Part shown: positions 4,075 through 58,602 of the stretch, piece by piece
Layout of the letters: the number at the start of each line of letters is the position of its first letter
Position numbering within the stretch: the first letter of the stretch is position 1
Origin: Rhizobiales bacterium NRL2
Lineage (GTDB): Bacteria > Pseudomonadota > Alphaproteobacteria > Minwuiales > Minwuiaceae
Assembly: GCA_001664005.1 (NCBI GenBank)
Contig: CP016093.1
Coordinates: forward strand, 3,059,001 to 3,123,000
Direction: 5' to 3'
DNA: 64,000 bases
Made by a program: the position numbers and the translations under genes
The notes under the pieces: model-generated
Database searches by the model: none
Seen by the model: only the letters and a program-made list of their open reading frames with translations
Told to the model about the DNA's origin: nothing

Positions 4075-5328
4075 ATGGAATTCGGGGTTTTCTACGAGCT
4101 GCAACTGCCCAAGCCCTGGAACGAGGGCGACGAGCACCGGCTGTTCCAGGAGGCATTGGAACAGGTGGAACTCGCCGACCGGCTGGGCATCGACTACGCG
4201 TGGGCGGTGGAGCATCACTTCCTGGAGGAGTATTCCCACTGCGCTTCGCCGGAGGTCTTCCTGGCCGCCGCCGCCGGGCGGACGAAGAACATCAAGCTGG
4301 GCCACGGCATCCGCCAGGTGATCCCGAACTACAATCATCCGGCCCGCACCGCCGAGGGCATGGCCTCACTGGATCTCGTCTCCAGCGGCCGCGCGCAGTT
4401 CGGCATCGGCGAGGGCGCCACGCGGCTGGAACTGCACGGCTTCGGCATTCCGGCCAAGAAGAAGCGCGCCATGTCGCTGGAGGCCGCCGAGCAGGTCGCC
4501 AACATGATGGTGATGACGCCCTATCCCGGCTACGAGAGCGAGAGCTTCTCGGTACCCTGCCGCAATGTCGTGCCGAAGCCGCTGCAGAAGCCGCATCCGC
4601 CCATGTGGATGGCCTGCACCAACCGCGACACCATCAAGGTCGCGGCGCAGAACGGCATCGGCGCGCTGGCCTTCTCCTTCGTCGACCCGGACGAGGCGAA
4701 GACCTGGGCCGATATCTACTACGACATCATCAAGTCCGATCAGTGCGTGCCACTGGGCCATGCGGTCAACGCCAACATCGCCATGGTCAGCGCCTTTTCG
4801 CTGGACCATGACCGTGGCGAAGCGATCCGCAAGGGCCAGGAGGGCTTCGAGTTCTTCTCCTACGCCATGCGCAAGCTGATTGCCGAGGACACGATCCCCG
4901 GCCGCACCCGGATCTGGGAGGACTTCCAGGCCGAGCGCAAGGTGGGCAGCGAGGAGATGATCGACGCCGCGAAGAAAGGCCGCGATCTGATGCACGCGCC
5001 CGGCATCGGCACGCCGGACGACTTCCGCAAGCACATCCGCAACTACGAGGATGCGGGCGTCGACCAGATCATCTTCCTGCAGCAGGCCGGCCGGAACACC
5101 CACGACGAGATCTGCCGGTCGCTGAACATGTTCGCCGAGGAGGTGCTGCCGGACTTCAAGGGCCAGGCATCGGAACGCATGGCCCGGAAGGCCGAGGAAC
5201 TGAAGCCCCACATCGAGGCCGCAATGAAGCGGAAACGCTACATGCCGGAACTGGCCGACGACGAGATCCCGCCGGTCCGGGCATCCAAGCCGCAGGTGGA
5301 GGTCAACCGCTCCGGCGACGCCGCCTGA
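4075..5328 (+). CDS. LLM-class flavin-dependent oxidoreductase
   Basis: Luciferase-like FMN- or F420-dependent oxidoreductase of 417 residues, cytosolic. The N-terminus MEFGVFYELQLPKPW and the WAVEHHFLEEYSH segment (about 43-55) are typical of bacterial luciferase-like monooxygenases, as are the LVSSGRAQFGIGEGATRLE strand and the late DDFRKHIRNYEDAGVDQIIF region. A purine-rich site (GGGAGGAGAAACG) sits just before the ATG. Substrate unknown. A hairpin terminator follows at 5361. Confidence 0.9.
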   Translation: MEFGVFYELQLPKPWNEGDEHRLFQEALEQVELADRLGIDYAWAVEHHFLEEYSHCASPEVFLAAAAGRTKNIKLGHGIRQVIPNYNHPARTAEGMASLDLVSSGRAQFGIGEGATRLELHGFGIPAKKKRAMSLEAAEQVANMMVMTPYPGYESESFSVPCRNVVPKPLQKPHPPMWMACTNRDTIKVAAQNGIGALAFSFVDPDEAKTWADIYYDIIKSDQCVPLGHAVNANIAMVSAFSLDHDRGEAIRKGQEGFEFFSYAMRKLIAEDTIPGRTRIWEDFQAERKVGSEEMIDAAKKGRDLMHAPGIGTPDDFRKHIRNYEDAGVDQIIFLQQAGRNTHDEICRSLNMFAEEVLPDFKGQASERMARKAEELKPHIEAAMKRKRYMPELADDEIPPVRASKPQVEVNRSGDAA

Positions 5329-5360
5329 CAATCGGCGTCAATTTCATCGGATGAGATCGG

Positions 5361-5391
5361 GGGCGGCCGCCGGAAGGTTGCCGCCCTCTTT
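5361..5391 (+). terminator. Rho-independent terminator after LLM gene
   Basis: Perfect 7-bp stem GGGCGGC (5361-5367) and GCCGCCC (5380-5386) with a 12-nt loop, followed by TCTTTC. It lies 33 bp after the LLM stop codon and before the DUF1800 gene. Confidence 0.6.
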
Positions 5392-5481
5392 CGATTCCAG
5401 CACTTCGTCGGCGGGCATCGCACTATCGACATCGCAAAGCCGTTGGGATTCAATCGCCCGCAGGCGTGAGGGGTTGAATTC

Positions 5482-6813
5482 ATGACGGTGCCCATGGGCG
5501 CGGTCGCGGCCATCCGGTTCGGATACGGCCCGCGTCCTGGCGAGATCGAACGGCGCGCGGGCGACCCCCAGGGCAGCCTGCTGGCCGAACTCGCGCCGGA
5601 TCCCCCAACGCCGGAGCCGCTCACCGGCCTGCCGCAGAGCGCGGCCATGCTGACCCGCTTCATGCGCGCCCGGCGCAGCGACGGCGATCCGGGCGTCATC
5701 CGCCTGTTCAAGAACGATTTCCGCATGCTGTTCCTGCAGGAGGCGATGCTGCGCACCCGTGCGGCGGTATTGACGGACACGCCCTTCCGGGAGCGGCTGG
5801 TGCACTTCTGGTCGAACCACTTCACCGTTTCGGCGCGCAAGGCGGTCCTGCTCGGCCTGGCCGGCGGCTTCGAGCGGGAAGCCATCCGCCCCAACATCAT
5901 GGGCCGATTCGAGGATCTGCTGGTGGCGGCGGTGCGCCATCCGGGCATGATCTTCTACCTCGACAACGTGCTTTCGATCGGTCCGCGTTCCGAGGCCGGC
6001 CGCCGCCTTGGCAAGGGCATGAACGAGAACCTGGCGCGCGAGATCCTGGAGCTTCACACCCTGGGTGCGGGCGGCGGCTACACCCAGGCCGACGTCGAGG
6101 CGCTGGCGTTGATGCTGACCGGCTGGAGCGTCGGCCGGCCCGACCGGGAACGGCAGCCCGGCGCCTTCTGGTTCTACGCCCGCGCCCATGAACCGGGCCC
6201 CCGCGCGCTTCTCGGACGGCGCTATGCCGACGATGGCGCCGGCCAGGCGGAGGCGGCGCTGCGCGATCTCGCCCGGCATCCGGCGACCGCCCGTCACGTC
6301 TGCGCCCGGCTGCTCCGTCATTTCGTCGGGGACCGGCCGGAACCGGCGGACCTCGACTACCTCGTCCGTGTCTGGTCCGAAAGCGGCGGCGACCTGCCGA
6401 CCGTCTATCGCGGTCTGATCGGGCTGCGCAACGCCTGGACGCCGCTGACCAAACTGAAGACACCCAATGACCTGCTGATCTCCAGCCTCCGCGCCACGGG
6501 CATCCGCAAGGTCAACCAGTGGGTGGTCAGCGCGCTGGAGCTTCTCGGCCAGGCGCCATGGTCCGCGCCGACGCCCAAGGGCTGGCCCGACCGCGCCGAC
6601 GCCTGGCTCAGCGCGGATCAGGCCATGCGCCGCATCGAGTACGCCGGCGCGCTGGGCGAGCGGATGACAGGCTGGCTCGAACCGGAGCGGACCGCCATCG
6701 ACGCGCTGGGACCGCTGCTGCCTCGCGACATGGCAGTCAGCGTCGGACAGGCCGAGAGCGAAGCGCAGGCGCTGGCGGTGCTGTTCGCCGCGCCCGCGTT
6801 CCAGAGGAGGTGA
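5482..6813 (+). CDS. DUF1800 domain-containing protein
   Basis: 443-residue protein of the DUF1800 family. Conserved blocks visible: FWSNHFTVS (about 112-120), GMNENLAREILELHTLGAGG (about 180-199) and ALMLTGWSVG. DUF1800 genes are nearly always followed by a DUF1501 gene, as here with a 2-bp gap, so the two are an operon. Biochemical function is not established; DUF1501 partners are Tat-exported, so a periplasmic or surface role is likely. No clear signal peptide is visible on this protein. Confidence 0.88.
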   Translation: MTVPMGAVAAIRFGYGPRPGEIERRAGDPQGSLLAELAPDPPTPEPLTGLPQSAAMLTRFMRARRSDGDPGVIRLFKNDFRMLFLQEAMLRTRAAVLTDTPFRERLVHFWSNHFTVSARKAVLLGLAGGFEREAIRPNIMGRFEDLLVAAVRHPGMIFYLDNVLSIGPRSEAGRRLGKGMNENLAREILELHTLGAGGGYTQADVEALALMLTGWSVGRPDRERQPGAFWFYARAHEPGPRALLGRRYADDGAGQAEAALRDLARHPATARHVCARLLRHFVGDRPEPADLDYLVRVWSESGGDLPTVYRGLIGLRNAWTPLTKLKTPNDLLISSLRATGIRKVNQWVVSALELLGQAPWSAPTPKGWPDRADAWLSADQAMRRIEYAGALGERMTGWLEPERTAIDALGPLLPRDMAVSVGQAESEAQALAVLFAAPAFQRR

Positions 6814-6815
6814 GC

Positions 6816-7979
6816 ATGACGGAACTCTCCCGCCGCCGCCTTCTCGCCTCATCCGGGCTCACGCTCGCCGCGGGCCTGACGCCTGCCCTGCCCGCCTTCG
6901 CCGGCGCCGACGAGCGCCGGCTGCTGGTGGTCATTCTGCGCGGCGGCATGGACGGACTGGCGGCATTGCCCCCGCTGGGCGACCCCGATTTCGCCGGTCT
7001 GCGCACGGCCGGGGCAGCACCGCTACCGCTCGACGGCTTCTTCGGTCTCCACCCGGCCCTGCCGACGCTGGCGCGGTTGTGGGCACGGAAGGAGATGATC
7101 GGTTTCCACGCCGTAGGCACGCCATACCGGGAACGGTCGCACTTCGACGCCCAGAACGTACTGGAATCGGGTCTGGACGGCCCGAGCGGCAGCGCCGACG
7201 GCTGGCTCAACCGGGCGGTCGCCGAGCGCGGCGCGCCGGCGGGCTACGCCATGGGCGTCGGCATCCGCCCGCCGCTGGTGCTGCGCGGCCGGGTGACCGT
7301 CGGCTCCTGGGCGCCCAACGCCCTGCCACAGGCCGACGAATCCACCCTCGCCCGGATCGCCGCGCTGTGGCGGGAAGACCCGCTGCTGGCCCCGCACATC
7401 GCAAGCGCCCTGGAGCAGCAGCGCATGACCGCCGGCCTCGACGAGGGAATCGAGGGCACGCGTCAGTCGCGCAGGCGGCTGGAGCCGCTGATGAAGGGCG
7501 CGGCGGAACTGATGAGCACGCCGGACGGCCCGCGCGTCGTGGCGATGGACGACACCGGCTGGGATACCCACACCAACGAGGCCAATCGCCTGGACCGGAA
7601 GCTGGCCGAACTGGAGGCGGGGCTGGAGCTTCTGGTCGGCGGCCTGCAGCCGGTCTGGCGGCACACCGCCGTGCTGGTCGTCACCGAGTTCGGGCGCACG
7701 GTGCGGATCAACGGCAACCAGGGCACCGATCATGGGGTCGGCGGCGCGGCCTTCCTGTTCGGCGGCGCGGTGGACGGCGGCCGGATCGTCAGCGAGTGGC
7801 CGGGTCTCGCCCCGCGTGACCTGATCCAGGGCCGCGACCTGCGGCCCACGATCGACCTGCGCAACCTCTTCCGGGCGCTGCTGCACGACCATCTGGGCTA
7901 CGCCTCGGCGGCGCTGGGCGAACGCGTGCTGCCCGGCGTCCGCCGCGATCGCCGTCTCGACGGCCTGATCCGGGGCTGA
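6816..7979 (+). CDS. DUF1501 domain-containing protein, Tat-exported
   Basis: 387-residue protein with an N-terminal SRRRLLASSGLTLAAGL segment that fits a twin-arginine signal. The sulfatase/alkaline-phosphatase-like DUF1501 fold follows: LRGGMDGLAALPP (about 45-57), FHAVGTPYRERSHFDAQ, MDDTGWDTHTNEANR and VTEFGRTVRINGNQGTDHG. Those Asp/His/Thr blocks are the usual metal-binding core of the fold; the substrate is unknown. The ATG at 6816 follows AGAGGAGGTGAGC, a strong ribosome site inside the end of the DUF1800 gene. Confidence 0.9.
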   Translation: MTELSRRRLLASSGLTLAAGLTPALPAFAGADERRLLVVILRGGMDGLAALPPLGDPDFAGLRTAGAAPLPLDGFFGLHPALPTLARLWARKEMIGFHAVGTPYRERSHFDAQNVLESGLDGPSGSADGWLNRAVAERGAPAGYAMGVGIRPPLVLRGRVTVGSWAPNALPQADESTLARIAALWREDPLLAPHIASALEQQRMTAGLDEGIEGTRQSRRRLEPLMKGAAELMSTPDGPRVVAMDDTGWDTHTNEANRLDRKLAELEAGLELLVGGLQPVWRHTAVLVVTEFGRTVRINGNQGTDHGVGGAAFLFGGAVDGGRIVSEWPGLAPRDLIQGRDLRPTIDLRNLFRALLHDHLGYASAALGERVLPGVRRDRRLDGLIRG

Positions 7980-8181
7980 GCCGCTATTCGATCGAAGCGC
8001 CCCTGCGCCACCTTCCAATCGACTGACACTAAGGAACATTTCCCCCTGGAAAGTGTCGAAACTCGAGACTCTTTCCCGGAAGTCAGTCGGACAAGTGTCT
8101 TTCGCCGATGTTGGTGGTCCCACAAAGTTTGTGCTTGGGTTCGCCGTCCCTCCCGGAGGAGCCACCCGAGCCGAGGATTGC

Positions 8182-47310: not shown

Positions 47311-48105
47311 TCAAGCAACGCCGGAAGAGCTCGTCAGCTGCCTGGTTGCGGTCACCGCCGGACTAGGCACCGAGGCTGGCCAGTTTTCGCGCGCGCACCC
47401 GAACTCCGCCTCGATCAGCCCCGGCAGCCTGCCTTCACCAAGCTCCCGGGTCTCGTCCTTGCGGGCGAGAAGGTCGCCGATCACAGGCCGCACCTCTGCC
47501 GGTAGGTCGCTTTCGTCGACCAGCGTCCCGAACGCCATGGGCACGACAGCTTCGCCCGGGTGGTGGCGCATCCAGCGGAGCGCGATCGCCGGGCGCAGGA
47601 CGTAGAATACCTTCTTCAGCGAGACGCTCTCCCTCCCTTCGAGGCTGCGCCGGTACTGGCGTTCGCCGAGATGGAGGTAACGGTTCGCGATCGCCGCGGG
47701 CTGCACGACCTCGCGCGCCAGGGCCAGCAGTTCGTCGCGGAAGGCGGGATCGCCTGCATAGGCATAGGGCGAGGTCAGCCATTCGATGACGACGGCATTG
47801 CCCTTGAGCAGCAGCTTCAGGGCTTTCTGGAGGTCCCAGCCATTGACGTCGTAGATCCCGTCCGGCGGGTACTCGATGACGTCCCGCTTCGGAAACAGAC
47901 TCAGATAGTCGTCCCGGGGGCGGACATAGATGAAACGGCAGTCGTAGTCGCTGTCGGGTGAGGCAAAGCCCCAGCCGCGGCTGCCGCTCTCGATCGCCAA
48001 CAGAATGCGGACGCCATGGTTGGTTTCGACCTCGCGCAGCTTCGCGTCGATGCCGGCGACGACCGCCGGGTCGAAACCCGGACTCAGACTGCGCAAGGTC
48101 GCCAT
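47311..48105 (-). CDS. Predicted nucleotidyltransferase (COG3541)
   Basis: 264 residues. The pol-beta-type active site LLAIESGSRGWGFASPDSDY then DCRFIYVR (about 36-62) is the GSxxxG/DxD pattern of the COG3541 YcgL-type nucleotidyltransferases. DVNGWDLQKALKLLLKGNAV and EWLTSPYAY are conserved family parts. Substrate unknown; family members are frequent on phages and islands. The last ~35 residues (GCARENWPASVPS...) may be an altered end. Confidence 0.82.
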   Translation of the reverse strand: MATLRSLSPGFDPAVVAGIDAKLREVETNHGVRILLAIESGSRGWGFASPDSDYDCRFIYVRPRDDYLSLFPKRDVIEYPPDGIYDVNGWDLQKALKLLLKGNAVVIEWLTSPYAYAGDPAFRDELLALAREVVQPAAIANRYLHLGERQYRRSLEGRESVSLKKVFYVLRPAIALRWMRHHPGEAVVPMAFGTLVDESDLPAEVRPVIGDLLARKDETRELGEGRLPGLIEAEFGCARENWPASVPSPAVTATRQLTSSSGVA

Positions 48106-48225: not shown

Positions 48226-49203
48226 TCAATCCATCGCCGCAGGCATGACTTGCCCGACCAGTTCCTTGATCTGGCGCTCCAGTTCGGGCGGAAGGGATTT
48301 CATCGCCTGCCACTCGTGCGCGAGACGTTCGCGCTCGGTCTCGATCTGTCTGGCGCTTTCACGCATGGGAAGGGCTGCGTAGCGCATCAGCGCCGACGTC
48401 ATATCCTGGTCCGTCCACTGCAATCTTGGCGGCAGGCCGAGGTTCAGAACCTGGGCCAGGAGCAACCATCCCGATCGACCGGTCGCGATCGATGAACCGG
48501 ACCTGGTCGCGCCATATCGGTCCGCATGAGCTGCCCGGTGAAGCAGGTGGGCGCGAAGAGCGATCCGATGGGCGCATCGCCGGGCCTCGGCGGCCGAAGA
48601 GGGGCCAATGACGCGCGCGTCCAGCGTATTGGGGTCGAGGATCACGTCGTCGGGATGCGGCAGAAGCTCGGGTTCGGGTTTGCCGCTTCGCCCGCAGGCC
48701 GCCAGAACCTGCTGCCCGTCTCGTTTGGCAGCTTCGAGGCGCCGGTATCGTTCGATCTTCAACTGCTGGCGGGCCGCCTCCTTCTGCTCCAGGTGCTCGA
48801 TGACATAGCGCTGAGAAAGACGATTGCCCTTGAGCGCGGACATGATCGCGGAGCGGACGACGGCCTGGGATGCCGGGAGTTCCACTTCTTCGCCGTTCTC
48901 CCGGAACCTGAGCAAACGATAGGCCTCCTGTTCGAGGAAGTAGTCGGACGGCGCATCGGCAAGCTCGATGGGTCTCGGCTTCGGCTTTTTCGGCCGGCCA
49001 CGCGGGTTGCCCGACTGGCCTTTCCGGAATTGCGTCGACCTGGGTGGCTTGCCGAAGCCGACCTCGTAGTCGTCGCCGTCGCCGTCGTCCCGGCGATCGC
49101 CTTCCGGCCTGGCACGGCCGTCATCCCCGGACCGTACATCGCGCTTCTGCGGACGATGCCGGCGCACCGGCCGCGCGCCCTTCCGGTCTTGACCGCCGCT
49201 CAT
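48226..49203 (-). CDS. DUF5681 domain protein
   Basis: 325 residues. A long, basic low-complexity start (MSGGQDRKGARPVRRHRPQK) is followed by the DUF5681 hallmark VGFGKPPRSTQFRKGQSGNP and RGRPKKPK (about 49-77), a probable DNA-binding strand. A region with RSAIMSALKGNRLSQRYVIE and a C-terminal helix follow. The family is a fixed companion of island methyltransferases, and the ATG overlaps that gene's stop by 4 bp. Function unknown. Confidence 0.82.
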   Translation of the reverse strand: MSGGQDRKGARPVRRHRPQKRDVRSGDDGRARPEGDRRDDGDGDDYEVGFGKPPRSTQFRKGQSGNPRGRPKKPKPRPIELADAPSDYFLEQEAYRLLRFRENGEEVELPASQAVVRSAIMSALKGNRLSQRYVIEHLEQKEAARQQLKIERYRRLEAAKRDGQQVLAACGRSGKPEPELLPHPDDVILDPNTLDARVIGPSSAAEARRCAHRIALRAHLLHRAAHADRYGATRSGSSIATGRSGWLLLAQVLNLGLPPRLQWTDQDMTSALMRYAALPMRESARQIETERERLAHEWQAMKSLPPELERQIKELVGQVMPAAMD

Positions 49204-50699
49204 CTGCCGCTCTCCGTCTCGGCGACGGCGGCCTGTGGGAGCGCCTCTTCCGCTTCGCCCTCTTGGGGCGCGTTCATGTCGGGATCGGGATCTTCCGGCC
49301 CCATCTCGGCCAGGCGTTCCTCCTCGACATCCTCGAAGTGCTGGCCGGTCGCCGCGAGGGTCGCGTGCTTGCCGGTGACGCGTTCCCAGCGCCGGACGAT
49401 GGTGTCGCAATAGGCCGGGTCGAACTCGAGGAGCCGGGCCTTGCGGCCGACCTGGTCGGCGGCAATCAGGGTCGTGCCCGAGCCGCCGAAGCCATCGAGG
49501 ACGATGTCGCCTCGTCTGGAGCAATCCCGGATCGCGTCCGCCACCAGGGCCACGGGCTTGACCGTCGGGTGCATGGCGAGGTCGGCGTCCCGGCTGACGC
49601 CAAAGCTGTTGATGCCGGCATAGTCCCAGACATTGGTGCGGTAGCGCCCGGTCTCGCCGAGGCCGAAGCTGTTCACATGGGGCCCGGTGCCCACCTTGAA
49701 GACGAAGACCAGCTCGTGCTTGGAGCGATAGAAGGCGCCCATGCCGCCATTGGTCTTGTTCCAGACGCAGAGGTTCTTCATCTCGTCGAAGACCGTGCGT
49801 CCGGCCGCCAGCAGTTCGCCCATGTGCCGCCAGTCCATGCAGACAAAGGCGATGGCGCCGTCGCGGCAGCGGTCGGCCGCCGCGCCCAGCGTCTCGGTCA
49901 GGAAGGCAATGAAGGCCTCCTCCGACATCTCGCCCGAGGCGAAGGCGAACTCCCGGTGGCGCACCTTGCCAAGCCCGGAGACATGGCCGTCGATCGGCAC
50001 GTTGTAGGGCGGGTCGGTGAAGACGAGATCGACCTCCTCGCCTTCCAGCAGGAGATCGTAGTCGGCGGGCGACCTGGCATCGCCGCAGAGCACGCGGTGA
50101 CGCCCGCAGCGCCAGAGATCGCCGGGCCGGCTGATCGCCGTGGTCGGCAGGTCCGGGATCTCGTCCTCGGGCCCGGCCGGGCCGGGCACGTCGCGTTCGC
50201 TCGCGGCATCGAGGGTAAAATCGATCTCGGCCAGCGAGAAGCCGGTGATCTCCACGTCGAAGTCGAGATCGACCAGGGCCTGCAGTTCGATCGCCAGCAG
50301 CTCCTGGTCCCAGCCCGCATTGAGCGCGAGCTTGTTGTCGGCCAGGATGTAGGCTCTGCGTTCGGCCTCGTTCATGTGCGAGAGGCGCACGGTTGGCACC
50401 TCTCTCAATCCCAGCTGCTTCGCCGCCAGTACGCGGCCATGGCCGGCGATGATGGTGTCGTCATCGGCGATCAGCACGGGGTTGGTGAAGCCGAAGCGGT
50501 CGATGCTGTCGGCGATCTGGCCGATCTGCCGCCTGGAATGGGTCCGGGCATTGCCCTGATAGGGGCGAAGCTCGTCGATGCGGCGCTCGGCGATCGTGGA
50601 CGCGGCCTTCTCCCGGCTGCCGCCCCGGGTCTGGCGCGTCCGCCTGGCGCCGCCCGCGCGGCGCTGGGTTCTCGTGGTCATCTTCGGGGTCTCCGACAT
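49200..50699 (-). CDS. ParB-domain DNA methyltransferase
   Basis: 499 residues. A ParB-like N-terminal domain (ELRPYQGNARTHSRRQIGQI, TIIAGHGRVLAAKQLGL; about 45-120) is fused to a beta-class N4-cytosine/N6-adenine methyltransferase. DLVFTDPPYNVPIDG is the catalytic motif (about 225-240) and VLDGFGGSGTTLIAADQVGR the SAM motif (about 410-430). There is no cognate restriction gene beside it. I use ATG 50699 (MSETPKMTTRTQ); a further ATG at 50756 is possible. May methylate island DNA or control its copy/excision. Confidence 0.9.
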   Translation of the reverse strand: MSETPKMTTRTQRRAGGARRTRQTRGGSREKAASTIAERRIDELRPYQGNARTHSRRQIGQIADSIDRFGFTNPVLIADDDTIIAGHGRVLAAKQLGLREVPTVRLSHMNEAERRAYILADNKLALNAGWDQELLAIELQALVDLDFDVEITGFSLAEIDFTLDAASERDVPGPAGPEDEIPDLPTTAISRPGDLWRCGRHRVLCGDARSPADYDLLLEGEEVDLVFTDPPYNVPIDGHVSGLGKVRHREFAFASGEMSEEAFIAFLTETLGAAADRCRDGAIAFVCMDWRHMGELLAAGRTVFDEMKNLCVWNKTNGGMGAFYRSKHELVFVFKVGTGPHVNSFGLGETGRYRTNVWDYAGINSFGVSRDADLAMHPTVKPVALVADAIRDCSRRGDIVLDGFGGSGTTLIAADQVGRKARLLEFDPAYCDTIVRRWERVTGKHATLAATGQHFEDVEEERLAEMGPEDPDPDMNAPQEGEAEEALPQAAVAETESGR

Positions 50700-51422
50700 T
50701 GCGCTGGCGTTTTCGGAGCATGGCCGGTCACGTTCTGTTCCGGCCGCGCCCTTCATCCACGCTGTCGCTATCGGAGCTCGATTGTCAAAGCGGCTGATGC
50801 AGAATCCGGCGAAAATCTTTCAAAGACTTCTAATAGACTCTGATAGATGCAGCCCTCCCGCCGCTGCATGACTTTCCAATCCGCAAAAAACCGCCTCTTA
50901 AAAATGGCCAGAACGTTTTAGAGCCTTTTAAAAGCTTATCAGAACCTTGTCGGCGCATGTCCCCGGGGGTTGCCTGCAAGAATCGAAACCGTCCCCCGAT
51001 TCCGACTGCAACTTGCTGGCATCGAGCGCCAGTTTGGCGAATCACCGGGTGAGGCGGTGCGATCGGCAGGCGTTGGAACCGCTCCTCGGGCAGGCTCAGT
51101 TGCCGGGATTCGGAGGTTGAACGGCTAGTTCCGGCCCGCCATGAAACAACCAACGGAGTACCGCGTGATCCTGATCTCTTCGAACGATGTCTCATCGAAG
51201 GTGGTCACCGTTGATATTTGAAGAGTGAGCGATAGACGTACTACGTCTATTGATCCCTGCGCTCATCATAACTGCAACGATCATCATCTTTTTGAATAAA
51301 ATCGCTGCAAGGCACTATTGTCATTGGTCTTCGGATCGCTATTTTCCCGGCAAGGGTAAGCAGGCCTTTAAAATCCACAAGTGTCCCGACTGTCTTCGGG
51401 CCAGATCAGAGAGTGAGTATTG
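50700..51422. other. AT-richer intergenic with palindromes
   Basis: Over 700 bp without a credible ORF, visibly AT-richer than its flanks, especially 50.8-50.95 and 51.2-51.4 kb. It holds an inverted repeat ATGCAGC/GCTGCAT (50847-50869) near the methyltransferase and a tight palindrome at 51232-51250 upstream of the mucR-like gene. Likely divergent promoters. Confidence 0.6.
51232..51250. promoter_or_regulatory. Operator-like palindrome upstream of mucR-like gene
   Basis: ATAGACGTA-C-TACGTCTAT, a perfect 9+9 palindrome around one base, in AT-rich DNA 173 bp before ATG 51423. Fits a dimeric repressor site, perhaps autoregulatory. Confidence 0.5.
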
Positions 51423-53340: not shown

Positions 53341-53473
53341 GGTTCGGCACCGCCGGCCGGGGCTCTGCGCTACATCAAGGCTCCGCCCCCCGGCCTCTTG
53401 AAATCCATACTGACCCAAGGTCAGATCACACGAGGACACTACCTACGGCTGGATAAAAGTTGGGGTCACGTCA
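53341..53473 (+). mobile_element. IS3/IS407-like right-end remnant
   Basis: Ends ATAAAAGTTGGGGTCACGTCA at 53473, nearly the same terminal repeat as the intact IS3 at 34408 (GGGGTCACGTCA). The sequence before it is only loosely similar, so it is a related, not identical, element that cut the recombinase fragment. Confidence 0.55.
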
Positions 53474-53484
53474 GCAATGCTGAT

Positions 53485-54462
53485 TTATCGGTCTCTTGAG
53501 GCGACGATCAATGCGTCAAGGCTTGCTCTTGTCGCACGGTTCTTCCCGCTCAAGACGAGGTCCACGCTTTCCATGGAGGCCGACGGTCCAGCTGCTCCGT
53601 CCGCCATGATGGCATAGGCAAAGCCCTCATCGAAAGCTGGGTCAAATCGATAAAATCCGCCCAAGGGCACCATTGCAGGGTGAAGCGCATTCACTCGATA
53701 TTCCCACGGCATGTAGCCCCTGACGGCTTCGCTGTCGGTGGCGTAGCAGCTTTCATCTTCAACGGGACGAGCGGCGTCCTCTTCCGTGCAGGGGCGGCTG
53801 TAATTTCCGGCCGAGATTAACTCGCGGCCCGCAGCCAAGGCCCGCCTACCCGCTTCTGCAATACGATCGGTGTCGTCCGCTTTCAGGGGTACGCCCGTGA
53901 GCGGGTGATAGGCGAAACGACAATCGACAAGGGGCAGGCCGCGGCGGAAGCAGTCTGGCAGTTCGACTGGAATCTCTTCGGTTATCGGACCGGGTTCACC
54001 GAAATAATCCGGCGACTCGACCTCCTTCAGGTCGACCATGATCACCGTCGCGAGCCGATGACCGTTCTCCGTATTGAACCGAATCCCGCTCACCAGACCC
54101 ATGCACAATGTCGCCTTCGAGAAACCGCGGGAAACATATGCGTCCAGGAAGTCGTCGGAGACCGAAATCAGGTTCCCGCCATCACCATAGTAGAAGCACT
54201 TGTTCGGGAGCTCGGGTTCACCCCGGTAGGGTCCGTAATTGGCTTCCATGAGACCCAACTGCCGCTGCGACTCGACATCGCTCAGGAACACCGGGTAACG
54301 CGGGTCCGCCGGCGCCGGCTGGTCCCTCTCCACGTACTGCCAGAGTATCCCCCACAGCCAACCCTCCATCACGTCATGCTGATCGGCTCTGGTAGATTGT
54401 GCAGAAAGCAGAATGCCCACAACGGCAAGCATGAATGAGGCAAATTTTCGAAAGGCCGGCAT
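53485..54462 (-). CDS. Secreted protein of unknown function
   Basis: 325 residues. Clear signal peptide (FRKFASFMLAVVGILLSAQS, cut near TRADQHD). The mature part has several cysteines (PNKCFYYGDGG, KATLCMGLVS, LPDCFRRGLPLVDCRFAYHP, YSRPCTEEDA, DESCYATDSE) that could form disulfides, and an acidic character. I recognise no family. It lies 104 bp downstream of the TIR gene in the same direction and could share its transcript. Confidence 0.65.
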   Translation of the reverse strand: MPAFRKFASFMLAVVGILLSAQSTRADQHDVMEGWLWGILWQYVERDQPAPADPRYPVFLSDVESQRQLGLMEANYGPYRGEPELPNKCFYYGDGGNLISVSDDFLDAYVSRGFSKATLCMGLVSGIRFNTENGHRLATVIMVDLKEVESPDYFGEPGPITEEIPVELPDCFRRGLPLVDCRFAYHPLTGVPLKADDTDRIAEAGRRALAAGRELISAGNYSRPCTEEDAARPVEDESCYATDSEAVRGYMPWEYRVNALHPAMVPLGGFYRFDPAFDEGFAYAIMADGAAGPSASMESVDLVLSGKNRATRASLDALIVASRDR

Positions 54463-54566
54463 GGGCGCTGCTCCGGAATCCGGTTCTGTTGTGTCGGACG
54501 GGTGCCGATGTTCGGGGAACTCACGGCTGTCGCCTGTCGGCGCTGGCGAGCCCTGACGGACCTGCT

Positions 54567-56744
54567 CTAGTTCAATTCCAACCGGTCTTCAATCTCGCCC
54601 ATCAGTCCGTGTTCGATCCCGTGCTCCCGAAGAACGCTGAAATCGTCTGACACCAGCAGCGGCCAGGTACGGCCGCCGACGACCGTCCCGCGATGCTTCA
54701 GATAGATCGCCCGGGCATCCTCGGTCTTTCCCGACAACATCAGGGCATGGGCGCGATTCAGGGCGTAGGCCGCACTATCCGGCCGGAGAGACGTGGCTTC
54801 CCCGGCCGCAGCCAGGGCCCTGTCCGGCGTGCCAGCGAACAAGGCGTACCAGGCAACATTGTTGAGCGCAGCGGCCAGGTTTTCGGCCAGTTCGCCGGAC
54901 TCGCGCAGGTCTTCGGCGTTCGTTTCGGCGACTTCGAGCGCTCCCCCGATGTCGCCGATGCTGAACCGCGCCAGCGACAGTTTCTGCGCCGCGCGTGACG
55001 CGGCATCGAGCTGGGTGGTACGGCCCGTAGCAGCGTTGGCTACCGAGCGCGCAACTTCGTAGGCCCTGGAAAAGCGTGCCTCGGCTTCCGTCACCGCGCC
55101 GGCGCGCCAGTAGACCTGGCCCAGCCGGTCCTCGCTGACCACCAGGTCCTCGGCCCACTCGACGCGGCCTGGATCGGATTGATAAAGCCGCCGCGCAATC
55201 TCCGCATCCGCCTGGAAGAAAACGAGCGCACCCTCCGCGTCGTTCTGGACAAGCCGGAGTTCTCCGATCTTCTGGTTGATCACCGACAGGTCACGCGACA
55301 GCCTGGTGTTCGACGGATCCTGGGCCGACAGTGTCCGGGTGATCGACAAGCTGCGCACATAGGCCTCTTCCGCAGCCTGGGCGGCCTGCCGAGCCAGGTG
55401 TGCCTGTCCGACCTTTTCCAGCACGACGGCGAGGCCGCGGCCCTCCGGTTCATACCTTTCGCGCAACGCCAGTGCCCGGCCGTAGTTTGTCAACGCCTCT
55501 TCAACGTCCTTGTCCCGCAAGGCCAGCGTGCCGATCTTTTCGAAAGCGACAGCGAGATTCAGGCCGAGCGCCGGGTCGTCGGGCCGTGCAAGAACCAGAT
55601 CCTGGTTAAGGGCAAGACTTTCGGCAAAGACCGCCTCAGCCTCGGACCTGCGATCAAGCGACAGCAGGATATCCCCTAACCGGTCCAGGCTTGCAGCCCT
55701 GTCTATCCGCCATTGTTCTTCTTCGGGCTCTGCTGCCGATAGCGCCGCAAACCCTGACGCAGCATCTCTCGCAGCCGACAAGGCGGCCTCAAGGTCTCCC
55801 TGCCGCGCGAGGGTCACCGACATCTCCGTCAACGCAGCCGCCTTGCTTCGCAGCAGGTCAGGCCGGTTTTCGCCTTCCAGCGCCAGTTGATCGACGAGTC
55901 CGCGCGAGCGTTCCAGGATGTCCCTGACCAGCTCCTGGGGAATGCCTTCCCGGTCCCGGAATCTCTGCGCGAGATCGAAGACGAGGTCGTTGGCGGTCTG
56001 ACTTCCGCGATCCAGAATTGTCTCTGCCCGGTCGCGTTGCTCGGCGGCCACCTGGCGGTTGAACTCCGCGAAAATGCCGAGGCCGATGGAAAATGCGGCA
56101 ACCGAAAATGCACCGACAAGCCAGTTTCGCTGCCGCCTGTTCGCCGCGGCGCGGCTGACAGCGATCCACTCGCGGTGCAGGGCAGTCGGCGTTGGCGCGG
56201 TATCGGGTTGAACGGAAAGCCATGTCTCGGCCTCGCTGAGTTCATCTCCCCGCAGGATGCGGGTCCTCGACGATTTCCCTGCACGGTCCCATTCATGGGC
56301 GCGCTCACCGAACTTCGTATGGTTCCGAACCCAGTCGATGTCGGTTGTGCAGGCATCGCGAACCAGCAGAATTGCCGCATCAAGATCTCTGTCGGGCGTG
56401 GCAAAGATGTAGTTCAGCTTCTCGATTTCTGGCGGTACGAGCGAATTCTCGACATCGTCGATAACCAGGGGAATGATTCTTTTGTTCAGCCCGACCGCGG
56501 TTTCGATTTCCCAGGAACATACTTCTGAACGAACCGAGTTGGGTGACATCACAAAGACGATGCCGTCGGCTTGGGTGATCAGTCCCTTGAGACGCCCGCG
56601 CCAGTCCTCGGCCGGCAGGATTTCCTCCGTGTCGCGGTAGACCGTCAGGCCGACCGCTTCCAGGGCTTCATAGATCCCTTCTGCTCGCGTCTTGTCTCGA
56701 CGGGCATAGGAGAAGAAAATTCTGGCGTCGCTCAACTTGTTCAT
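54567..56744 (-). CDS. TIR-domain protein with membrane helix and TPR repeats
   Basis: 725 residues. TIR domain at about 6-125: ARIFFSYARRDKTRAEGIYE, YRDTEEILPAEDWRGRLKGL, IVFVMSPNSVRSEVCSWEIE, with a glutamate (E79) in the SxxCxxE position used by TIR NADases. A helix at about 208-225 (WLVGAFSVAAFSIGLGIFAE) follows, then some 450 residues of helical TPR-like repeats (LDRLGDILLSLDRRSEAEAV, FEKIGTLALRDKDVEEALTN, LGQVYWRAGAVTEAEARFSR). TIR is cytosolic and the TPR part would be periplasmic if the helix crosses once. Possible stress or defence signalling; no known defence partner is adjacent. Confidence 0.82.
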   Translation of the reverse strand: MNKLSDARIFFSYARRDKTRAEGIYEALEAVGLTVYRDTEEILPAEDWRGRLKGLITQADGIVFVMSPNSVRSEVCSWEIETAVGLNKRIIPLVIDDVENSLVPPEIEKLNYIFATPDRDLDAAILLVRDACTTDIDWVRNHTKFGERAHEWDRAGKSSRTRILRGDELSEAETWLSVQPDTAPTPTALHREWIAVSRAAANRRQRNWLVGAFSVAAFSIGLGIFAEFNRQVAAEQRDRAETILDRGSQTANDLVFDLAQRFRDREGIPQELVRDILERSRGLVDQLALEGENRPDLLRSKAAALTEMSVTLARQGDLEAALSAARDAASGFAALSAAEPEEEQWRIDRAASLDRLGDILLSLDRRSEAEAVFAESLALNQDLVLARPDDPALGLNLAVAFEKIGTLALRDKDVEEALTNYGRALALRERYEPEGRGLAVVLEKVGQAHLARQAAQAAEEAYVRSLSITRTLSAQDPSNTRLSRDLSVINQKIGELRLVQNDAEGALVFFQADAEIARRLYQSDPGRVEWAEDLVVSEDRLGQVYWRAGAVTEAEARFSRAYEVARSVANAATGRTTQLDAASRAAQKLSLARFSIGDIGGALEVAETNAEDLRESGELAENLAAALNNVAWYALFAGTPDRALAAAGEATSLRPDSAAYALNRAHALMLSGKTEDARAIYLKHRGTVVGGRTWPLLVSDDFSVLREHGIEHGLMGEIEDRLELN

Positions 56745-56899
56745 TTCAAGAGAGGTTTAATGCCTGATTGGGCCTTGTCAGAGCAAATTCGGAGCGCATC
56801 CGGTTCGCGCCCGTTAGGCTGGCCGAATGCGCAATCCATTCCGCTATGAAAGCGGCATTGTCAGACCAATCCGGAACCGGCGTGTCAACGGCCGGTTTC
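56745..56899. other. Intergenic before IS3 remnant
   Basis: About 155 bp upstream of the TIR gene. Presumably holds the leftward TIR promoter; no clear motif seen. Confidence 0.4.
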
Positions 56900-57131
56900 C
56901 TTGACCTCAGGCTGCCAGCTGACGCCGCGCAGGTGGTCATCGAACAATGGCGCCGTCGCTACAACACGATCCGACCGCACAGCCGTCTCGGCTACCGACC
57001 ACCGGCCCCGGAGGTCCTCATTCCGCCAGGCCGGCCGTCAGGCTCCGCTCCGCTTCTCCAGCCGGCCGGCCTGGCGGCAAAGCCGCCCATGCATAGACAT
57101 CCCACCCGGACCAATCGCTGGGGGCTGGTCA
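56900..57131 (+). pseudogene. IS3-family transposase C-terminal fragment
   Basis: AQVVIEQWRRRYNTIRPHSR and LGYRPPAPEVLIPPGRPSGS are the classic end of an IS3 OrfB; the frame stays open to TAG at 57142. The IS end ...GGGGCTGGTCA lies at 57131. The last ~75 bp match the remnant at 18267-18345. The N-terminal part and the left end are missing. Confidence 0.8.
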
Positions 57132-57450: not shown

Positions 57451-58602
57451 GTGAGAAGGACCTTGAGCCTCAGGATCGGCCTATTTTATCCGAACTTCTA
57501 CGCTGATCATGCGCTCTCCGGCGCGGTGGCGCGCGCCAACATGAAGCTGGAGGACTTCTCCACACACCAGGCCGTCGCACAGGCGTGCGAGGAAGCCCAG
57601 CTCGATTACGTCTTCATGGCGGACGGCTATGCTCCGTACGGGAAGAAGTCTCACGCAGCATGGATACGCGATCCGCTGCTGATGGCGCCTCTGCTGGCAA
57701 TGACGGTACTTGGCGCGACGCGCCGGCTGCGCTGCATCACGACGCTCCACACGTCGTGGCATCATCCCCTGACGATCGCGCGGATGGGGGCAACTCTGGA
57801 TGCGATGAGCGCTGGACGGTGGGGGGTCAATATCGTCACGGGCGCCGGCTCCTTCGGACCGCCGCTGGACCCCGACTTCATCGGACGCTTCGACCACGAT
57901 GCGCGCTACGAGCGAGCGGCCGAGGCGATGGAAATCATGACTCAAGCCTGGTCCGGCGAACCAGTGGATTTCTCCGGCGAGTATTTCGAAGTTCGCGGCC
58001 AGGTGGTTCATCCCGTCCCGGTGCAACAGCCGCGCCCCTTGGTGGTCAGCGCTGGGGCCTCCGACGCTGGCCGCGCATTCGCCGGGCGCTACGCCGATTA
58101 TACCTTCCTGCCCGGGCGGACCCAGAAGGACGAGCTGATGCGGCGCGTCGCCGACATGCGGCGAGTAGCAGCCGATAACGGTCGCGGCGACGAGGCCGTT
58201 CGCGTCCAGATTCATGCCAGTATTTGTGTACGCGAGACCGAGGAGGAGGCTAAGGAATACTCCGACTGGGTGGCGGGTTCGGTCGACCTCGATCTCGTGG
58301 TCGAATATCTCAACGCCGTACGATCCCAAATCAGCACATACGACGACATCTACGCCCAGATGGGCGACCTGCAGATGCGGGAGATCGGTTCGGTCAGCGG
58401 CGCGCGCCGGATTCACGGCTCCGCCGACGCGGTGGCCGACGAGATCGAGATGCTTTACCGGGACTACGGCGCCAGCGGCCTTGTCATCACCCTGCCCATC
58501 TGGTCGCCTGACGAGATCCGTCTGCTGGGCAGCCTGTTGATGCCGCGCCTCGCCGAACGCGGCATATGGGAACCGCCCGAGATCCGGGGGTATGGCTGGT
58601 GA
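57451..58602 (+). CDS. LLM flavin-dependent monooxygenase (SfnG/RutA-like)
   Basis: 383 residues. LRIGLFYPNFYADHAL start, then THQAVAQACEEAQLDYVFMA, the GRWGVNIVTGAGSFGPPLDP block and DHDARYERAAEAMEIMTQAW with FSGEYFEVRG. This pattern matches FMNH2-dependent two-component monooxygenases of the SsuD/NtaA/RutA branch. Start is GTG 57451 or TTG 57463. A neighbouring TauD-like dioxygenase and a CoA ligase suggest catabolism of an organosulfur or heterocyclic compound; the substrate is inferred only loosely. Confidence 0.88.
   Translation: MRRTLSLRIGLFYPNFYADHALSGAVARANMKLEDFSTHQAVAQACEEAQLDYVFMADGYAPYGKKSHAAWIRDPLLMAPLLAMTVLGATRRLRCITTLHTSWHHPLTIARMGATLDAMSAGRWGVNIVTGAGSFGPPLDPDFIGRFDHDARYERAAEAMEIMTQAWSGEPVDFSGEYFEVRGQVVHPVPVQQPRPLVVSAGASDAGRAFAGRYADYTFLPGRTQKDELMRRVADMRRVAADNGRGDEAVRVQIHASICVRETEEEAKEYSDWVAGSVDLDLVVEYLNAVRSQISTYDDIYAQMGDLQMREIGSVSGARRIHGSADAVADEIEMLYRDYGASGLVITLPIWSPDEIRLLGSLLMPRLAERGIWEPPEIRGYGW

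What the first reader, a model, noticed from the sequence alone, without database searches (positions are those of the whole stretch)
54567..56744. Membrane TIR-TPR protein with a likely catalytic glutamate
The TIR domain keeps the SxxCxxE motif (E79) of NAD-cleaving TIRs. It is tethered by one helix to a long TPR array, next to a disulfide-rich secreted protein, in a decayed island. The design (outside sensor, inside NADase) would suit defence or envelope-stress signalling and is not a standard named system.
Basis: partly seen in the sequence, partly recalled or inferred. Interest (0 to 1): 0.65.

Follow-up and report, generated by a model that had tools for sequence, protein, structure and literature searches.

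The report
Membrane TIR protein with exported partner
A bacterial gene for a membrane protein with a TIR signalling domain inside the cell and a long repeat domain predicted to lie outside turns out to travel with a gene for an exported, cysteine-conserved partner, and the same two-gene arrangement recurs in distantly related bacteria, so it looks like an undescribed inside-outside alarm module.

Summary
Window 54567-56744(-) encodes a 725-aa protein: TIR domain (Pfam TIR_2, 4.8e-21), one hydrophobic helix, TPR array; E79 aligns with the SARM1 catalytic segment. The secreted neighbour (53485-54462) proved the key: it is the second gene of a recurrent pair. All six partners have signal-peptide-like N-termini and four invariant cysteines; two carry SH3b. 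Purifying selection acts on both genes. Related TIR-TM proteins end in M23-peptidase or CHASE2 domains, known from outside the membrane, which supports TIR-in/TPR-out. I read it as a mobile module: exported partner and outward TPR regulate a cytoplasmic TIR NADase. Pairing is shown; topology, NADase activity and defence are inferred. Against: the hydrolase-TPR case has no transmembrane helix; two of five lineages sit among housekeeping genes. No named system tested fits; new variant of TIR effector systems.

The parts
54567..56744 (-). first gene: TIR - linker - single TM helix - TPR array, 725 aa
   Evidence: dN/dS 0.156 against G007 copy
56391..56720 (-). TIR domain, residues 9-118 (E79 codon 56508-56510)
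   Evidence: Pfam TIR_2 4.8e-21; E79 invariant in 5 of 5 paired TIRs and in 7 of 7 of alignment A4
56067..56123 (-). predicted transmembrane helix, residues 208-226
   Evidence: KD 1.94; net charge +4 in the 15 residues before, -1 in the 15 after
54696..55877 (-). TPR array (about residues 290-683), with conserved C-terminal cap NRAHA (residues 663-667)
   Evidence: pLDDT mostly above 70 at about 301-440 and 641-680; N663, A665, H666, A667 invariant in 5 of 5
53485..54462 (-). second gene: exported partner, 325 aa, four invariant cysteines (C89, C120, C171, C181)
   Evidence: no Pfam, NCBIfam or PADLOC match for this protein
54385..54462 (-). signal-peptide-like segment of the partner, residues 1-26 (cleavage site STRA|DQ by eye)
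   Evidence: hydropathy; no signal-peptide predictor was available
53471..56926 (.). two-gene unit shared with sister species G007 at 89% DNA identity
   Evidence: blastn
56927..57131 (+). IS3-type transposase 3' remnant abutting the unit; in G007 the same sequence lies on the other side of the unit, as the end of a transposase with rve/HTH_21 domains
56776..56788 (+). remaining copy of a repeat that, in G007, bounds the pair as a 17-nt inverted repeat

Best explanation
It is a two-gene, horizontally mobile module. Gene 1 makes a membrane protein whose TIR domain is in the cytoplasm and whose TPR array is in the periplasm; gene 2 makes an exported, disulfide-type partner. In the resting cell the partner and the TPR array hold the protein in a state in which the TIR domains are apart; a change in the envelope (phage entry, envelope damage, or another foreign object) alters the partner-TPR complex, brings the TIR domains together, and the TIR enzyme (E79) cleaves NAD+ to stop growth or kill the cell, or makes a cADPR-type signal. 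Shown here by sequence: the pairing and its recurrence, signal-peptide-like partner N-termini, single TM helix, retention of E79, purifying selection. Inferred: topology, partner-TPR contact, NADase activity, trigger and defence role.
For: Partner searches found homologues only rarely, and each of the four found outside the window genus and examined is the gene directly downstream, same strand, of a TPR (or TPR-like) effector: R. leguminosarum plasmid CP050566 (41 bp gap), G576 (44 bp), G769 (91 bp) and G767 (18 bp); TIR-TM-TPR or TPR-like in three of four. Window and G007 gaps are 104 bp. Five of five paired TIR proteins have one strong hydrophobic peak, at residues 174-230, with more positive net charge on the TIR side. 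Topology: a TIR-TM protein on an Agrobacterium plasmid (L028) ends in a Peptidase_M23 domain (4.5e-21) after its one helix, and a Kovacikia protein (L026) has three TIR domains, a helix and then CHASE2 (4.3e-56); both domains are known from outside the inner membrane (recalled). Six of six partners have signal-peptide-like N-termini and C89, C120, C171, C181; two have an SH3b region (56% identical to each other; SH3_3 1.9e-5 in one, below the gathering score, none in the other; similar to regions in a trypsin-like protease and PAN-domain proteins). E79 5 of 5, and N663, A665-A667 of the C-terminal cap 5 of 5. Loci of TIR proteins with other C-terminal parts (L029, L031, L032, L038, L026-L028) hold no partner in the DNA fetched. 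dN/dS 0.156 and 0.169.
Against: In G576 the effector is an alpha/beta-hydrolase-TPR protein without a TM helix (its one hydrophobic peak, VFVCHSLGGLVV, is the nucleophile elbow by eye), so there TPR and exported partner would be in different compartments. Its TPR is of another type. Two of five lineages (G769, G767) lie among housekeeping genes. E79 is kept in most TIRs, so it does not prove an enzyme. The positive-inside signal is modest for R. leguminosarum (+2 against +1) and absent in the Agrobacterium M23 protein (+4 against +4). G767's TIR scores below Pfam's gathering score and has no Pfam TPR. Single-sequence AlphaFold models were poor: partner mean pLDDT 35.7, TIR region under 40.
Confidence: 0.53

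Rival explanations
1. Export-failure fuse: the TPR protein recognises unexported partner precursor in the cytoplasm; when secretion is blocked (for example by a phage) the precursor accumulates and switches the effector on. This fits both the TIR and the hydrolase version if the TPR is cytoplasmic.
For: G576 effector has no TM helix, so its TPR is cytoplasmic while its partner has a signal-peptide-like N-terminus.
Against: Five of five TIR versions have one TM-like helix between TIR and TPR, with charge bias for TIR-in/TPR-out; related TIR-TM proteins carry M23 or CHASE2 after the helix.
Confidence: 0.12
2. Envelope-stress or developmental signalling, not defence: the TIR makes a signal or acts as a scaffold, and the pair is a regulator in some bacteria of this class.
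For: G769 and G767 copies lie among housekeeping genes; SH3b region in two partners suggests binding to the cell wall (recalled role of SH3b).
Against: Sporadic distribution: 1 of 347, 2 of 199 and 1 of 385 genomes searched with the partner profile (counting only E below 1e-5; the one of 385 is the window's own), mobile-element borders, plasmid and conjugative-element carriage.
Confidence: 0.2
3. The TIR is not an enzyme; it only gathers other proteins when clustered.
For: C76 is lost in two of five; E at this place is kept in over 70% of all TIRs, more than are known enzymes.
Against: E79 invariant in 5 of 5 although identity to the window protein falls to 25%; TIR parts of other conflict-system proteins are the best matches in NCBIfam and PADLOC, all partial, those of NCBIfam below cut-off.
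Confidence: 0.2
4. Ordinary TIR-TPR protein beside an unrelated secreted protein (chance neighbourhood).
For: Both genes are rare, so few examples exist; three weak partner matches were not examined.
Against: Same order, same strand and close spacing in five lineages, four of them found by searching with the partner alone.
Confidence: 0.03

Closest known systems
Bacterial TIR NADase defence proteins (SpbK, Thoeris ThsB, TIR-STING, Cat1)
   Same: TIR fold with the catalytic-type glutamate; in SpbK clustering of the TIR by a phage portal protein switches the NADase on (PMC12847820, abstract and passages)
   Different: those act in the cytoplasm and sense phage proteins or nucleotides (SpbK from the passages; the others recalled or from abstracts); here a TM helix, a TPR array and an exported partner
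Group 6 bacterial TIR proteins with C-terminal TPRs (PMC7075850, section 61)
   Same: N-terminal TIR, C-terminal TPRs, over 700 aa
   Different: described mainly from actinobacteria; the passages I saw mention no TM helix or exported partner for them; group membership not computed here
TIR-linker-TM proteins with other C-terminal parts (own genome L029, G331 L032, R. beringeri L038, Agrobacterium L028, Kovacikia L026)
   Same: TIR front end and a helix; for own genome and G331 42% and 43% identity over residues 6-292 and 5-242
   Different: propeller, M23-peptidase or CHASE2 parts instead of TPR (L032 by eye) and no partner gene in the fetched DNA
Animal Toll receptor with cystine-rich ligand (recalled analogy)
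   Same: single-pass TIR receptor with a secreted cysteine-conserved protein
   Different: no homology claimed; TIR at the opposite end, TPR instead of LRR, bacterial envelope

Membership tests
TIR domain | match to a TIR model above gathering score | tested here: met
   TIR_2 75.9 bits against cut-off 28
TIR NADase | catalytic glutamate in place | tested here: met
   E79 aligned with SARM1 segment, invariant in 5 of 5 pairs
TIR NADase | NAD+ cleavage dependent on that glutamate | not testable with these tools
   needs an assay
Thoeris | ThsB model above curated score together with a ThsA gene (definition recalled) | tested here: not met
   NCBIfam ThcB4 30.3 bits against 220; PADLOC ThsB matches partial, TIR only; no ThsA match listed for the six proteins nor the ten. 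The rest of the genome was not searched for ThsA
Retron-TIR / SAVED-TIR | reverse transcriptase or SAVED domain in the protein | tested here: not met
   only the TIR part matches; remainder is TPR
STAND NTPase sensors | STAND/AP-ATPase domain between TIR and repeats | tested here: not met
   no NTPase model among the 13 families listed for the protein at E up to 1
Group 6 TIR-TPR (PMC7075850) | group-specific residue patterns and an N-terminal TIR with C-terminal TPRs | tested here: inconclusive
   architecture met; residue patterns not scored
the two-gene module described here | repeat-bearing effector followed by exported four-cysteine partner | tested here: met
   six of six examined partner genes; the G767 repeat part is TPR-like, without a Pfam TPR match

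The most novel reading that the evidence does not exclude
A bacterial Toll-like receptor arrangement: an exported, cysteine-conserved adaptor (in some lineages with a wall-binding SH3b part) bound to the outward TPR array of a single-pass TIR protein senses an attack at the envelope, before or during phage entry, and fires a cytoplasmic TIR NADase. It is one member of a wider set of membrane TIR proteins with exchangeable outside parts (TPR, propeller, M23 peptidase, CHASE2), and the partner can also serve another effector (alpha/beta hydrolase).
Probability: 0.3. Interest if true: 0.85.

Novelty: new variant of a known kind. Interest (0 to 1): 0.6.

Why it matters
The bacterial TIR defence protein that I read about here (SpbK), and others as recalled, sense infection from inside the cell. 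A conserved TIR protein that spans the membrane, with a dedicated exported partner, would be a way for bacteria to read the outside of the inner membrane and answer with NAD+ loss, much as animal Toll receptors join an outside ligand to an inside TIR domain. The partner's cysteine-bearing core matches no model in Pfam or NCBIfam (the window protein none in PADLOC either) and so gives a handle to find more such modules and to test the idea directly.

Tried and rejected
Searches that found nothing: window TIR protein in genome contigs; A1 in genome contigs and viral contigs; A2, A5, A6 in viral contigs; both window proteins in phages; window TIR protein alone against PDB sequences; partner profile against PDB sequences, only a chance-level match, E 0.47.

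Rejected arguments: (1) lack of cysteines in the TPR array as a sign of export: a STAND-type TIR-TPR protein (L034) also has only two in 1345 aa. (2) AlphaFold models: one sequence each, TIR and partner not folded; not used for fold searches. (3) An empty site in sister species: the right-hand neighbour gene 57451-58602 was found in 1 of 7 genomes of the genus, the window's own, so no empty site could be set. (4) Terminator between the two genes: the one pattern match lies inside the partner gene, fewer than in shuffles; no conclusion.

Weak partner matches seen and not followed: G049 (3.5e-4), G377 (9e-4), G250 (0.0047); left out of the counts. In one search only two candidates per genome were scored, so TIR-TM-TPR proteins without a partner may have been missed; three of the five TIR-TM-TPR(-like) examples were found through the partner, so 'five of five have a partner' is biased and only the partner-to-effector direction is a fair test. 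The stretches fetched around other TIR genes are limited (some end with the contig), so absence of a partner there is absence in those stretches only.

Full report
What is there. Window 54567-56744(-) is a 725-aa ORF. Pfam gives TIR_2 at residues 9-118 (4.8e-21) and several TPR models; no STAND NTPase. Hydropathy gives one strong peak, residues 208-226, with RRQR before it. The front end (TIR, linker, helix) is shared with TIR proteins whose C-terminal parts differ: a 1319-aa paralogue in the same genome (42% over residues 6-292) and a WD40-like protein in G331 (43% over 5-242).

The neighbour is the key. The next gene downstream, 53485-54462(-), has no match in Pfam, NCBIfam or PADLOC; of the six family members only one matches anything in Pfam at E up to 1, the SH3_3 match described below, and NCBIfam gives only chance-level matches. 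A tblastn of this neighbour in 72,556 plasmid records gave one record, a Rhizobium leguminosarum plasmid, CP050566, and there the matched gene lies 41 bp after a gene for a TIR-TM-TPR protein that aligns with the window TIR protein over its length at 23% (6e-16). The two partners align at 29% over 160 columns (4e-17). A sister species, G007, has both genes side by side (TIR 91%, partner 86%).

More pairs. The partner alone, and then a profile of three partners (A1), against 385 genomes of the class gave only the window's own genome beyond weak matches. Against 347 genomes of the family of G196, A1 gave one, G576 (2.4e-24). With G576 added (A5), 199 genomes of the order of G196 gave two, G769 (1.5e-62) and G767 (8.5e-11). 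In G769 and G767 the partner again follows a TIR-TM protein, with TPR (G769) or with TPR-like repeats and the same C-terminal cap (G767). In G576 it follows, at 44 bp, a 1015-aa alpha/beta-hydrolase-TPR protein (Abhydrolase_6 3.5e-5, just below its gathering score; TPR_10 2.9e-23), in a stretch that has a T2SSE-type ATPase gene on one side and traG and relaxase genes on the other. The families of G769 (4 genomes) and G767 (3 genomes) gave no further copy.

Conserved features. Partner: C89, C120, C171 and C181 in six of six; C225 and C239 in three. Six of six have a signal-peptide-like N-terminus by hydropathy. Two carry an SH3b region between signal peptide and core (56% identical over 78 residues; SH3_3 1.9e-5 in one, below the gathering score, none in the other). 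TIR proteins of the five pairs: F10, Y13, D17, D38, D47, E79 and P92 in five of five; at the other end W632, A634, N663, A665-H666-A667, A677, R678, Y681, D701, L705. C76 is not conserved. A profile of seven TIR domains (A4: window, G007, R. leguminosarum, own paralogue, G331, R. beringeri, G233) finds SARM1 TIR structures (best about 3e-11; the very best match is a metazoan TIR-STING, 8.9e-12) and places the invariant E on the segment DWVHKEIVTAL, which holds the catalytic glutamate (its identity as E642 is recalled). This glutamate is kept in over 70% of all TIRs (PMC7075850, passage), so it permits but does not prove NADase activity.

Selection and mobility. Against G007, dN/dS is 0.156 (TIR gene) and 0.169 (partner), dS 0.30 and 0.44. 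The shared DNA is 53471-56926 (89.1%); at its right end the window has 205 bases of an IS3-type transposase end that in G007 lies on the left side of the unit. In G007 the pair is bounded by a 17-nt inverted repeat, 94% complementary, 17 and 28 bases outside the two genes, and then by transposase genes with rve/HTH_21 (IS3-like) and IS110 domains; one repeat copy remains in the window. The chance of such a repeat was not computed. The pair looks like a mobile cassette.

Surroundings. R. leguminosarum: SLATT protein, patatin (PADLOC phospholipase effector 1.5e-44), TPR-S protein, a protein matching defence candidate PDC-S60 (1.9e-41), and a second TIR protein. G576: conjugation genes. Window and G007: IS borders. 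G769 and G767: housekeeping genes (DUF2585, HD domain, methyladenine glycosylase; DUF3299, cyclase, GCS2). Defence is thus plausible, not shown.

Mechanism. The charge bias (net +2 to +4 before the helix, -2 to +1 after, five of five) and the need of a TIR enzyme for NAD+ put the TIR inside and the TPR outside, where the exported partner would be. M23 peptidases and CHASE2 sensors work outside the inner membrane (recalled). The hydrolase-TPR case, with no TM helix, is the main fact against direct contact of partner and TPR, and it is why I keep the export-fuse rival. Loci of TIR proteins with propeller, M23 or CHASE2 parts have no partner in the fetched DNA, which ties the partner to TPR effectors, within the small number of loci seen.

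Literature. Eight searches ran, all on the PMC library; in their capped listings I saw no paper on a membrane TIR-TPR protein with an exported partner. Seen in passages or one short section only: PMC7159879, PMC7075850, PMC12847820. Most subscription papers are outside the library, so absence from print is not proven.

Verdict. Observation confirmed; interpretation partly supported and extended: an apparently undescribed two-gene module with a mobile, sporadic distribution. New variant of a known kind (TIR effector systems).

Noticed in passing
L029:5401-9360(-) (own genome, G000:C1 about 3337400-3341359): A second TIR-linker-TM protein, 1319 aa, with weak WD40/propeller matches after the helix and an orthologue in G007 (L031); a divergent neighbour (L029:9554-11356) looks by eye like a TPR protein with a SLOG-like and a cyclase-like part.
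   Followed up: partly
L028:4959-7892 (Agrobacterium tumefaciens plasmid pAtCG920): TIR - TM helix - WD40 - Peptidase_M23 protein: a TIR protein whose far end looks like a cell-wall hydrolase.
   Followed up: partly
L026:4296-7445 (Kovacikia minuta plasmid pB): Three TIR domains followed by CHASE2 and several helices.
   Followed up: partly
L024 (CP050566.1 35774-48115): Compact cluster of conflict-type genes on a R. leguminosarum plasmid: SLATT, DUF3380, patatin, TPR-S, PDC-S60-like gene, two TIR proteins.
   Followed up: partly
L030:1384-1400 and 4706-4722: 17-nt inverted repeat tightly bounding the two genes in G007, as in a passenger cassette moved in trans by an IS transposase.
   Followed up: partly
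window 49200-50756(-): ParB_N plus N6_N4 DNA methylase protein next to a DUF5681 protein (48226-49524), a phage-like pair; RlaP-type nucleotidyltransferase at 47311-48105.
   Followed up: no
L042:8172-8828 with 5080-8127: Partner paired with an alpha/beta-hydrolase-TPR effector beside conjugation genes; its TPR type is shared with CHAT and caspase proteins on plasmids.
   Followed up: partly
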